From: an uncultured Solirubrobacteraceae bacterium | GTDB taxonomy: Bacteria > Actinomycetota > Thermoleophilia > Solirubrobacterales > Solirubrobacteraceae | Direction of reading: 5' to 3' | NCBI GenBank assembly: GCA_902806205.1 | Contig: CADCVR010000027.1 | Coordinates: forward strand, 1 to 64,000 | DNA length: 64,000 nucleotides | Shown here: one piece after another, positions 59,460 to 62,640 of the stretch | How positions within the stretch are numbered: position 1 is the first letter of the stretch | Layout of the letters: every line of letters begins with the position of its first letter | Notes under the pieces: model-generated | Told to the model about the DNA's origin: nothing | What the model saw: the letters and a program-made list of their open reading frames with translations, nothing else | The model's database searches: none | Program-made: the position numbers and the translations under genes

Positions 59460-60056
59460 CTAGCCGTCGTCGCCGGCCTTGGGCACGCCCCCGGCGGGGG
59501 AGGCCGCCCCGAACCAGTCCTTGCGCCAAGCGTTCATCTGCTCGATCTCGCGCGTCTGGGCCGCGATGATCTCCTCGGCGAGCTTCTTGGCGTCGCCGTC
59601 GGCTCCGCGGTCGAGCTCGATGCGCGACATCCGGACCGCACCCTGGTGATGCGGGATCATCATGTCGATGAACGCCCGGTCGAACGGCTCGGCCGTCTTC
59701 AACGAGCCCGTGTCCATCGACATGCCCATCATCTCGGCGCTGGCGCCGAGTTTGCCCTTCGGCTCGCCGGCGGCCTTCAGGCGCGCGTCGATGGAGCGCA
59801 ACCGGTCGATCTCCTCCTGCTGGGTGCGGATGATGTCGTCCGCCAGGCCCTGGATCTCGGGCCGCTTGGAGCGTTGCTTGGCGATCTCGGCCATGTCGAC
59901 GGCAGACACGTGGTGAGGGACCATGTCCCCGGTGAAGGCACGGTCCACCCCGTCGGCCTTCGCGGTGTCGCCACCTGACGTGACTGCGATGACGATGACG
60001 ACCGTCAGGCCGACGAAGAGCGCGCCGAGGATGATGCGCATGCGTGTCGTGTTCAC
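59460..60056 (-). CDS. DUF305 protein, ferritin-like, membrane anchored
   Basis: 198 residues from a GTG preceded by AAGGAGA with a 6-base gap. The N-terminal signal anchor reads RMRIILGALFVGLTVVIVIAV. Two copies of the DUF305 motif follow: MVPHHVSAVDMAEIAKQR and MIPHHQGAVRMSRI, each leading into a helix with acidic residues; this is a double four-helix layout rich in His and Met. DUF305 proteins are often near copper genes and may bind copper outside the cell. This is consistent with the neighbouring CopC-CopD gene; direct evidence is lacking. Confidence 0.9.
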   Translation of the reverse strand: MNTTRMRIILGALFVGLTVVIVIAVTSGGDTAKADGVDRAFTGDMVPHHVSAVDMAEIAKQRSKRPEIQGLADDIIRTQQEEIDRLRSIDARLKAAGEPKGKLGASAEMMGMSMDTGSLKTAEPFDRAFIDMMIPHHQGAVRMSRIELDRGADGDAKKLAEEIIAAQTREIEQMNAWRKDWFGAASPAGGVPKAGDDG

Positions 60057-60124
60057 TGTTTCTCCTTGAATGCTCGGGTTGGACGGGTGGGAACGCTCGC
60101 GACCGCACGGCCGAGAGCCACCCG

Positions 60125-60547
60125 TCAGCGCCGGAAGACCTGGAGAACGGAGAGGTCTGGGGGTCGCGCGCGCGCCGCCAGCGCGACCCGGGGAGTGAGA
60201 ACCCGCGGCAGCGTCGGCCATCTCAGCCCGTACCCCAGGGCGAGCAGCGCGGCCAGCGCCCTGGCGAGGGCGAGGGCTCCCAGGGCCAGGGCGGCGGTCT
60301 GGACGATCGCCAGGCACATGGCCATCGGCGTGCCTCCCGGCTCGCGTGCACCGGCCGCGGCATCGCTGGTCGCGTCGACCATCGCGTGCCTGTCCGACAT
60401 CGCCGCGTGCCCGCCGGCGGGCGACGCCATGTGACCCCCGGCGACGGCGCCGTGGGCGGACAAGACCGCCAGGCCGAGCATCACCGTCGCCAGAAGCGTC
60501 GCGCAGCGACGCCCGCGGCGCAGCGAGGCGTTCAGTTCGATGAGCAC
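60125..60547 (-). CDS. His/Met-rich small membrane protein (DUF6153-like)
   Basis: 140 residues from a GTG. One hydrophobic segment at about 16-36 is followed by a His/Met-rich stretch (GGHMASPAGGHAAMSDRHAMV), a second hydrophobic region (about 75-105) with MCLAIVQTAAL, and the tail RPPDLSVLQVFRR. The pattern resembles DUF6153 proteins of actinobacteria. The histidines and methionines suggest copper binding outside the membrane, in line with the DUF305 gene 68 bases downstream. Function inferred. Confidence 0.68.
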   Translation of the reverse strand: MLIELNASLRRGRRCATLLATVMLGLAVLSAHGAVAGGHMASPAGGHAAMSDRHAMVDATSDAAAGAREPGGTPMAMCLAIVQTAALALGALALARALAALLALGYGLRWPTLPRVLTPRVALAARARPPDLSVLQVFRR

Positions 60548-60555
60548 CGTGGTCG

Positions 60556-60561
60556 AGTGTA
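60556..60561 (-). promoter_or_regulatory. Candidate -10 element
   Basis: TACACT ends 8 bases before the GTG at 60547. Confidence 0.4.
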
Positions 60562-60709
60562 GCCCGGCCCCTCCGGCGACGAGGCAGGAAGCGCGCGTCC
60601 TTCGGTGCTCCGGCGGGGGCGGCGCTTCCCCGTGCAGGACACCCGGGTGGCCACGGCGAACACGGTCGACATGGACCCATTCGGTCCCGGGGAGAGGTCG
60701 AACGCATTG

Positions 60710-61513
60710 TCACGTGCCGGCGGCGGAGCTGGCGTCCAGGCGCGCGCGCGGCGGGCCCCGCTCACCGCGCCGCGCGGCGACCGTGCGCCCGACCACCGCG
60801 AAGAGCAGGATGGCCACGCTGGTCCACTGGGCGTTGTTCAGCCCGAGCGCAAGCTCCGGGCTGTCGGAGCGCAGGAAGAACACGAAGAACCGGCCCCCGG
60901 CGAACAGGGCCACCACGAGCCACGCGAGGTCCCCCGCACGCGGCAGGCGGTCACGCAGGGGCCACAGCACCGCGAGCACCGCCAGCCCGAGGAGGACCTC
61001 GTAGAGGCCCCCGTTCTCGAAGGCGACCGCCGGGTTCGGCGTCAGTGCGTCGGGGTGGGAATTGCGAACCGCCAGCAACGACGTGCTCTGGGCGCCGTAG
61101 TGCTCGCCGTTGATGACGTCGCCGAGACGGCCGATCGCGATCCCGAGAGGCAGCGCGAGCGCGACCCCGTCGAGGTATCTGACGTCCAGCCGCGCCAGCC
61201 GGACGTAGAGCGCCAGCAGGATGCCGGCGGCGATGAACCCCCCGTCGAACGTGAAACCCTCGGTGCCGAGCAGCGGGCCCCCGCGCTCCAGGACGTAGAA
61301 GAGGCGGCCGCCGACGATCCCGCCGAGCGTCAGCAGCATGGCGATGTTGTACAGCGGCTCGACGTCCATCTCGCGCGCCCGCAGCCAACGCGAGGCGGCC
61401 AGCCCGCCGACGAGGATGCCCACCGCGATCGTGATCCCGTGCCAGGCGAGCGTGAGCGGCCCGAGATGGATCTCGGGCGGGATGCCGATGGTGATGACGG
61501 CGAAGTCGCGCAC
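60710..61513 (-). CDS. lgt: Prolipoprotein diacylglyceryl transferase
   Basis: 267 residues with about seven membrane helices. The family signature appears as GGRLFYVLE near 68-76 and GRLGDVINGEHYGAQ near 127-141, the latter holding the essential Arg-Gly-Asn-Glu region. LAWHGITIAVGILVGG and RFFVFFLRSD are also typical. Lgt adds diacylglycerol to the lipobox cysteine of prolipoproteins. It may be a second, accessory copy near the copper/thiol genes. TAGGCT ends 6 bases before the GTG. Confidence 0.94.
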   Translation of the reverse strand: MRDFAVITIGIPPEIHLGPLTLAWHGITIAVGILVGGLAASRWLRAREMDVEPLYNIAMLLTLGGIVGGRLFYVLERGGPLLGTEGFTFDGGFIAAGILLALYVRLARLDVRYLDGVALALPLGIAIGRLGDVINGEHYGAQSTSLLAVRNSHPDALTPNPAVAFENGGLYEVLLGLAVLAVLWPLRDRLPRAGDLAWLVVALFAGGRFFVFFLRSDSPELALGLNNAQWTSVAILLFAVVGRTVAARRGERGPPRARLDASSAAGT

Positions 61514-61519
61514 GATCCG

Positions 61520-61525
61520 AGCCTA
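61520..61525 (-). promoter_or_regulatory. Candidate -10 element of lgt
   Basis: TAGGCT ends 6 bases before the GTG at 61513, leaderless spacing. Confidence 0.45.
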
Positions 61526-61571
61526 GGGCCCAAGTCGCACGGGTGGACAGGCATCCTGCCGGCCGAGGCGT

Positions 61572-61577
61572 TATGTT
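61572..61577 (+). promoter_or_regulatory. Candidate -10 element of the riboswitch transcript
   Basis: TATGTT-type hexamer (TTATGTT at 61571-61577) lies about 15-20 bases upstream of the riboswitch core, a suitable place for its promoter. Confidence 0.3.
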
Positions 61578-61594
61578 GCTGCCCACTGCCGTAC

Positions 61595-61722
61595 CAAGCC
61601 GAGTCACCGCGGAAACCATCTGCGGTGAGCGGGGGAACCAGGATGTTGGGGCGAATCGACTCCGGAGTGAGTCGTAGCGCGATGCCTTCTTCGCGCGAGC
61701 CCGTCAGCTCACCCCGTAGGCG
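61595..61722 (+). ncRNA. c-di-AMP (ydaO/yuaA) riboswitch
   Basis: The leader of the M23 peptidase gene contains the core blocks of the ydaO class in order. The TCACCGC/GCGGTGA stem comes first (about 61603-61627), then GGGGGAACCA (61631-61640), TTGGGGCGAATC (61646-61657), and GAGCCCGTCAGCTCACCCCG with TAGGCG (61697-61722). Such riboswitches bind cyclic di-AMP and, in actinobacteria, commonly switch off cell-wall hydrolase genes. AAGGAG follows at 61731-61736, close enough to be affected. Confidence 0.88.
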
Positions 61723-61740
61723 ACCAATTGAAGGAGCTGC

Positions 61741-62640
61741 ATGCCGTCGTCTGTCGTGGTTGGTTGTCGTGCCGCGCTCGCGGTCCTCATACTGAGTGGC
61801 TGCCTCGCGGTTCCGGCCTGGGCGGCCGTGCCCACGTCCGCCGGCGGGGCAACCGCGCCCGACCGGCCCCGCATCGACGAGCTGCGCTGCGCGCCGGGCA
61901 CCGCCGTCTGCCGGCACGGTGAGCTGCTCTCGGTGCTCGGCTCGGGCATGCAGGGCACCGACGCGGTGGTCTTCCTCGGTCGTCGCGGCGCCCGAGATGA
62001 TCGCCGGTCCCGGCCCCGAGCGACGGACGGCAGCAAGCTCACCGTCCAAGTTCCCTACGGGGCGCGTTCGGGACCGGTCAAGGTCGTCGACCGCGGCGTC
62101 GGGGCGATTCGCTCGTCCACGGCGTTGCAGGTCCGCGCCAAGGGCCGCGCCGCGGCGCCGCCGCCACCAGCGCCCCCGGCACCCGCCGCCCCGGGCCCCG
62201 TGACGGCCGCGGCCGTCGCCCCCACGCCCGGCGTCTTCCCGATCCGGGGTGCCCACACCTACGGCGAGAGCGCGCAGAATGTCTTCAACGGCAGGGGCCG
62301 GCATCAGGGCAACGACGTCTTCGCCGCCTGCGGGACCCCGCTGGTCGCTCCTCAACCCGCGACCGTCACGCGCTCGGCCTTTCAGAGCCGCGCAGGCCAC
62401 TACGTCGTGCTCAAGGCCGACGACGGGCGAGGGTTCGCCTACATGCACCTGCGCGAGGCGTCGCTCGTCACGAAGGGTCAACGCGTTGCCGCCGGCCAGC
62501 CCGTCGGCACGGTGGGCGACACCGGCCGGGCCTCCGGGTGCCACCTGCACTTCGAGCTCTGGACGGCTCCGGGCTGGTACGAGGGCGGCGAGCCCATCGA
62601 CCCGAGACCACAGCTCAAGGCCTGGGACGGCGCGGGCTAA
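61741..62640 (+). CDS. Secreted M23 family metallopeptidase under riboswitch control
   Basis: 299 residues with a signal peptide (ending AVPAWAAVPT). An IPT-like or Ig-like beta domain (about 40-130, GTAVCRHGELLSVLGSGMQGT) and a Pro/Ala linker (about 135-165) precede the LytM/M23 peptidase domain. The domain has the H-x3-D motif HQGNDVFA and the HLHFELW metal/catalytic motif, plus GYVGDTG-like VGTVGDTGRASG. It probably cleaves peptidoglycan cross-bridges outside the cell. AAGGAG lies 4 bases before the ATG. Control by the upstream c-di-AMP riboswitch links wall cutting to turgor/potassium signalling. Confidence 0.9.
   Translation: MPSSVVVGCRAALAVLILSGCLAVPAWAAVPTSAGGATAPDRPRIDELRCAPGTAVCRHGELLSVLGSGMQGTDAVVFLGRRGARDDRRSRPRATDGSKLTVQVPYGARSGPVKVVDRGVGAIRSSTALQVRAKGRAAAPPPPAPPAPAAPGPVTAAAVAPTPGVFPIRGAHTYGESAQNVFNGRGRHQGNDVFAACGTPLVAPQPATVTRSAFQSRAGHYVVLKADDGRGFAYMHLREASLVTKGQRVAAGQPVGTVGDTGRASGCHLHFELWTAPGWYEGGEPIDPRPQLKAWDGAG

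What the first reader, a model, noticed from the sequence alone, without database searches (positions are those of the whole stretch)
61595..61722. c-di-AMP riboswitch controlling a secreted M23 peptidoglycan peptidase
The leader contains all core blocks of the ydaO/yuaA class in correct order, followed by AAGGAG and a signal-peptide M23 peptidase. It is established that actinobacterial ydaO riboswitches often precede wall hydrolases (Rpf, NlpC/P60). Here the target is an M23 enzyme with a separate beta domain. The implied circuit is that high c-di-AMP lowers hydrolase expression. The wider genome should therefore encode a DisA-type cyclase.
Basis: partly seen in the sequence, partly recalled or inferred. 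Interest (0 to 1): 0.62.

Follow-up and report, generated by a model that had tools for sequence, protein, structure and literature searches.

The report
Riboswitch controlling a wall-cutting enzyme
The window carries a genuine but ordinary c-di-AMP riboswitch, an RNA sensor in front of the gene for a secreted enzyme that cuts the bacterial cell wall; comparison with relatives suggests that it blocks the ribosome's docking site when the signal molecule is abundant.

Summary
Rfam's ydaO/c-di-AMP model (RF00379) matches window 61587-61738 (+) at 75.1 bits (cut-off 38, E 1.3e-15), full length, 2 nt before the ATG of a 299-aa M23 peptidase (61741-62640). The predicted cyclase exists: one DisA gene in the same genome, beside four more RF00379 copies, all before other wall-lytic or peptidoglycan-binding proteins. 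The arrangement is standard in this order (apparently Solirubrobacterales): all 151 sampled genomes carry the riboswitch, M23 genes follow 14 of 110 sampled copies, and 25 of the 30 closest M23 relatives have it upstream. M23 also follows it elsewhere in the phylum.

I add the likely mechanism. The aptamer ends 19 nt before the start codon, with no terminator. The family's loop-tail pseudoknot co-varies across relatives (none of 500 tail swaps scores as well), and its 3' strand here is the Shine-Dalgarno GAAGGAG (61730-61736). So c-di-AMP most likely blocks translation, as reported for Corynebacterium glutamicum nlpC. This is inferred: for this single copy the complementarity could be chance (3-8% of shuffles), and several close M23 relatives lack it.

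Verdict: new member of a known kind, low interest.

The parts
61587..61738 (+). RF00379 c-di-AMP (ydaO/yuaA) riboswitch, full model match including the Shine-Dalgarno
   Evidence: 75.1 bits, E 1.3e-15, model 1-134 of 134
61598..61600 (+). helix P1, 5' strand (pairs with 61719-61721); the outermost Rfam pair, 61597 with 61722, is not a standard pair
   Evidence: cmscan alignment
61719..61721 (+). helix P1, 3' strand; 19 nt from here to the ATG
   Evidence: cmscan alignment; spacing of relatives
61677..61696 (+). last aptamer hairpin: stem GCGC 61677-61680 with GCGC 61693-61696
   Evidence: sequence, cmscan alignment, same hairpin in relatives
61686..61692 (+). pseudoknot loop strand CUUCUUC (predicted)
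   Evidence: 7 pairs, one of them U-G, with 61730-61736; covariation in relatives
61730..61736 (+). Shine-Dalgarno GAAGGAG, also the predicted pseudoknot 3' strand
   Evidence: sequence
61741..62640 (+). secreted M23 peptidase, 299 aa: signal-peptide-like N-terminus, all-beta domain 44-134, Pro/Ala linker, M23 domain 187-288 with H188, D192, H268, H270
   Evidence: Pfam E 1.7e-22; invariant residues; AlphaFold model; Foldseek
61514..61586 (+). gap between the divergent lgt gene and the aptamer; the promoter is expected here but no sigma-70-like match was found

Best explanation
It is a ydaO-class (RF00379) c-di-AMP riboswitch that acts as a translational OFF switch for a secreted M23 cell-wall peptidase. 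When DisA-made c-di-AMP binds, the aptamer and its loop-tail pseudoknot are stabilised. The 3' strand of that pseudoknot is the Shine-Dalgarno itself (GAAGGAG, 61730-61736, held by CUUCUUC, 61686-61692), and P1 ends 19 nt before the ATG, so the ribosome cannot load. When c-di-AMP falls the site is freed and the hydrolase is made. Shown here: family membership, gene order, catalytic residues of the target, DisA in the same genome, covariation of the pseudoknot in relatives, absence of a terminator. Inferred: ligand binding by this copy, direction of control, translational level, physiological purpose.
For: RF00379 full-length match. DisA (DAC, DisA-linker) in the genome. Four other copies before wall-lytic or peptidoglycan-binding proteins. 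Riboswitch upstream of 25 of the 30 closest M23 relatives. No terminator-like site in 61400-61900. Gap from P1 to start is 30 nt or less in 126 of 139 copies of the order, median 21. Loop and tail co-vary: own pairs 16.25 against 14.55 with swapped tails; for 50 distinct non-consensus loops 14.34 against 11.96; 0 of 500 swaps reach the observed value in either test. The crystallised ydaO RNA has complementary CUCCUUCG and CGAAGGAG at these places, and its pseudoknot is described (PMC5393176). C. glutamicum nlpC: c-di-AMP lowers reporter protein, not transcript (PMC9960051).
Against: No measurement on this RNA. For this copy alone a loop-tail match this good occurs in 3-8% of shuffles. Several close M23 relatives (L045, L046 twice, L048, L075, L076) show little complementarity. 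The swap test does not remove shared ancestry. Streptomyces rpfA is reported to work by transcription termination (PMC10117811).
Confidence: 0.72

Rival explanations
1. The same c-di-AMP riboswitch, but ligand binding causes premature transcription termination instead of blocking the ribosome.
For: B. subtilis ydaO and B. thuringiensis kdp work this way (and the introduction quoted); Streptomyces rpfA is reported to do so without a canonical terminator.
Against: No terminator-like site; only 19 nt between P1 and the ATG, and short gaps across the order; the Shine-Dalgarno lies in the pseudoknot.
Confidence: 0.15
2. The aptamer binds c-di-AMP and represses translation, but by simple closeness of the folded aptamer to the start site or by another rearrangement (for example the P1 3' strand pairing with codons 2-5 in the free state), not by the pseudoknot over the Shine-Dalgarno.
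For: Minimum-energy folding pairs the P1 3' strand with the first codons; some close M23 relatives lack loop-tail complementarity.
Against: The pseudoknot co-varies in most copies of the order and is described for the crystallised family member.
Confidence: 0.1
3. The RNA is a decayed or non-functional relative that no longer answers to c-di-AMP.
For: No experiment on this RNA; the outermost P1 pair is not standard.
Against: Full-length match at 75.1 bits and conserved position before homologous genes in many genomes.
Confidence: 0.03

Closest known systems
Corynebacterium glutamicum nlpC c-di-AMP riboswitch (PMC9960051)
   Same: ydaO-type aptamer before a secreted wall peptidase, no canonical terminator, OFF switch, translational level suggested, CUCC-GGAG pseudoknot proposed by the authors
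   Different: the target there is NlpC/P60, here M23; tested there by reporters, only inferred here
Streptomyces rpfA ydaO-like riboswitch (PMC10117811; primary paper not held)
   Same: same aptamer class before a secreted wall hydrolase; DisA-made signal
   Different: reported to act by transcription termination; target is a resuscitation-promoting factor
Bacillus subtilis ydaO (kimA) riboswitch, founding member of the class
   Same: same aptamer class
   Different: controls a potassium importer through an intrinsic terminator (from the introduction quoted); no terminator here
RF00379 copies before M23 genes in other Solirubrobacterales and actinomycetes (for example L044-L049, L073-L078, L195)
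   Same: same riboswitch and target family; 25 of 30 closest M23 relatives; M23 also in the phylum sample
   Different: loop-tail complementarity is weak in several of them

Membership tests
c-di-AMP riboswitch (RF00379, ydaO/yuaA) | covariance-model score over the curated threshold, full length | tested here: met
   75.1 bits against 38, model 1-134 of 134
c-di-AMP riboswitch (RF00379, ydaO/yuaA) | location in the 5' leader of a gene of the known regulon | tested here: met
   19 nt from P1 to the ATG of an M23 wall peptidase
c-di-AMP riboswitch (RF00379, ydaO/yuaA) | loop-tail pseudoknot seen in the family's crystal structure | tested here: inconclusive
   covaries across the order, but for this copy alone chance gives as good a match in 3-8% of shuffles
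c-di-AMP riboswitch (RF00379, ydaO/yuaA) | binds c-di-AMP | not testable with these tools
   needs in-line probing or SHAPE; a DisA cyclase is present in the genome
transcription-terminating ydaO riboswitch (B. subtilis type) | intrinsic terminator between aptamer and gene | tested here: not met
   no terminator-like site in 61400-61900; 19 nt gap
peptidase family M23 (PF01551) | M23 domain with HxxxD and HxH residues | tested here: met
   79.9 bits against 28.7; H188, D192, H268, H270 invariant
peptidase family M23 (PF01551) | cleaves peptidoglycan | not testable with these tools
   needs an enzyme assay

The most novel reading that the evidence does not exclude
Across this whole order c-di-AMP controls a wall-hydrolase regulon at translation, through a ydaO pseudoknot whose 3' strand is the Shine-Dalgarno itself, so that the contact that completes the aptamer also blocks the ribosome. 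It would be a general expression platform for which I found only one experimental precedent (C. glutamicum nlpC).
Probability: 0.6. Interest if true: 0.4.

Novelty: new member of a known kind. Interest (0 to 1): 0.22.

Why it matters
It places a little-studied actinobacterial order in the known scheme in which c-di-AMP holds back wall hydrolases. It also gives a testable mechanism for how ydaO riboswitches without terminators act: the Shine-Dalgarno is one strand of the family's pseudoknot. Loop and tail swaps in a reporter would settle a point that the Streptomyces and Corynebacterium reports leave open.

Tried and rejected
Pairing of CAGCUC (61706-61711) with GAGCUG (61734-61739): seen by eye and set aside, because relatives mostly read CAGCUA there and have other tails, so it is probably chance. 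MAFFT alignment of loop plus tail did not align the tails, because the linker between P1 and the pseudoknot varies in length; a register-free own-versus-swapped test was used instead. The primary papers on the ydaO structures, the ydaO regulon and S. coelicolor rpfA are not in the library. No held paper has 'c-di-AMP riboswitch' together with 'M23'; M23 behind RF00379 in other actinomycetes and unspecified 'secreted peptidases' in S. lividans mean that this is no sign of novelty. The promoter scan found nothing. Folding energy of the leader is only mildly below shuffles (z -1.6), so the case rests on the covariance model.

Full report
Check of the observation. The raw sequence shows the leader, GAAGGAG at 61730-61736 and ATG at 61741. 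Rfam cmscan of the whole window gives a single hit above threshold: RF00379, c-di-AMP riboswitch, 61587-61738 (+), 75.1 bits (gathering score 38), E 1.3e-15, model 1-134 of 134. The ORF behind it (61741-62640, 299 aa) has one Pfam domain, Peptidase_M23, residues 187-288, 79.9 bits. The M23 residues HxxxD (H188, D192) and HxH (H268, H270) are invariant in relatives. The closest solved structures by sequence are M23 peptidases such as StM23 (9gy1), ShyA and DipM. An AlphaFold model (mean pLDDT 71.8) shows an all-beta domain at 44-134, a low-confidence Pro/Ala linker and the M23 domain; Foldseek returns M23 enzymes. The 'separate beta domain' is therefore supported; it has no Pfam match. The gene stands between a divergent lgt gene and a biotin-carboxylase gene.

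Genome context. The genome (3.38 Mb in 108 contigs) holds five RF00379 copies. The four other targets are two proteins with PG_binding_1 and PG_binding_3 domains (one with a weak NlpC/P60 match below the cut-off), one with a transglycosylase-like domain plus PG_binding_1, and one with a DPBB lytic-transglycosylase domain. The genome has M23 domains at five places over the cut-off, and only the one in this window shares a contig with a riboswitch. One DAC gene is present; its 370-aa product carries DAC, DisA-linker and a weak helix-hairpin-helix match, so it is a DisA.

How common it is. Named close relatives of the M23 protein come from Solirubrobacterales, among them Conexibacter arvalis, so the window is probably from that order. 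All 151 sampled genomes of the order have RF00379, mostly in several copies. Among 110 genes behind RF00379 copies chosen by riboswitch score, 29 have PG_binding_1, 25 DPBB_1, 15 PG_binding_3, 14 Peptidase_M23, 3 transglycosylase-like and 3 NlpC/P60 domains; one protein can count twice. Of the 30 best M23 relatives from different genomes (L043-L072, the window's own included), 25 have RF00379 upstream on the same strand; L064 and L068 lie at contig ends. The six loci of named Solirubrobacterales (L073-L078, partly the same genomes) all have it. In a sample across the phylum, 4 of 20 genes behind RF00379 were M23 (two of the 20 come from the same order). The M23 target is thus a normal member of the actinobacterial c-di-AMP wall regulon. 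Literature agrees on the regulon: seven and six wall hydrolases in S. coelicolor and S. venezuelae (PMC10117811), six leaders in S. lividans including 'secreted peptidases' (PMC8079986), nlpC in C. glutamicum (PMC9960051).

Mechanism. P1 ends at 61721, 19 nt before the ATG, and no terminator-like site exists in 61400-61900. In 139 copies the gap from P1 to the chosen start has a median of 21 nt, and 126 are 30 nt or less, which leaves no room for a terminator. In relatives the last aptamer hairpin carries the loop word CUCUUUC and the tail after P1 carries GAAAGAG. Where the loop changes, the tail changes with it: CUUCUUC/GAAGAAG, CUCUUCU/AGAAGAG, UCCUUGC/GCAAGGA, CCCUUUC/GAAAGGG, ACUCUUA/UAAGAGU, CUCUCUU/AAGAGAG. 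Own loop-tail pairs score 16.25 on average against 14.55 (sd 0.16) with swapped tails; for 50 distinct non-consensus loops 14.34 against 11.96 (sd 0.32); no swap of 500 reaches the observed value in either test. The crystallised ydaO RNA (4QLM/4QLN), whose sequence is printed in PMC5393176, has the complementary words CUCCUUCG and CGAAGGAG at these places, and that paper describes a pseudoknot in it. In the window the loop is CUUCUUC (61686-61692) and the tail GAAGGAG (61730-61736): seven pairs, one of them U-G, covering the whole Shine-Dalgarno. The strand that completes the aptamer is then the ribosome-binding site. The best-supported reading is a translational OFF switch. The nearest experimental precedent is C. 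glutamicum nlpC, where c-di-AMP lowered reporter protein but not transcript, and whose authors propose a CUCC-GGAG pseudoknot.

Limits. Nothing was measured on this RNA. A match this good between this loop and tail occurs in 3-8% of shuffles, so the single copy does not prove the pseudoknot. Several close M23 relatives (L045, L046 twice, L048, L075, L076) have little complementarity; their control may work in another way or be lost. The swap test does not remove shared ancestry. Minimum-energy folding, which cannot draw pseudoknots, offers an alternative in which the P1 3' strand pairs with the first codons. Streptomyces rpfA is reported to work by termination, so the level of control needs a test.

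Verdict. Observation confirmed, interpretation supported, target and arrangement ordinary for the lineage. New member of a known kind; interest 0.22. The more interesting lead met on the way is a conserved 44-aa micro-protein directly behind the same riboswitch in ten genomes of one genus of the order.

Noticed in passing
L212-L221 (for example L214, RF00379 at 1334-1495 + with the ORF from about 1501; L121:1412-1543:-): In ten genomes of one genus (g27) of the order, RF00379 sits directly before a conserved 44-aa ORF, consensus MDLDRHVVRPxTEETGxRAAFGMxVGxLAGxAIALPLLVGVFGL, with one hydrophobic segment. All ten have the riboswitch upstream, the pseudoknot words fit (CUUCUUC/GAAGAAG), and differences fall mostly on third codon positions (384, 261, 631), so it is probably a real micro-protein under c-di-AMP control.
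   Followed up: partly
L135:1405-1548:- and L175:270-413:+: A second, different short ORF (48 aa, one hydrophobic segment) directly behind RF00379 in two genomes.
   Followed up: no
L046 and L074 (same contig, G115:C43): At least two M23 genes in tandem, each with its own RF00379 copy, but with little loop-tail complementarity; the expression platform may have decayed or changed after duplication.
   Followed up: no
G000:C3:29221-29353 - (L005): The weakest own-genome RF00379 copy (45.2 bits) shows no clear Shine-Dalgarno and no loop-tail match before its peptidoglycan-binding protein gene.
   Followed up: no
window 59460-60713, - strand: An ORF with two PHH-type motifs that looks, from memory, like a DUF305-type protein; seen only in the ORF list.
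   Followed up: no
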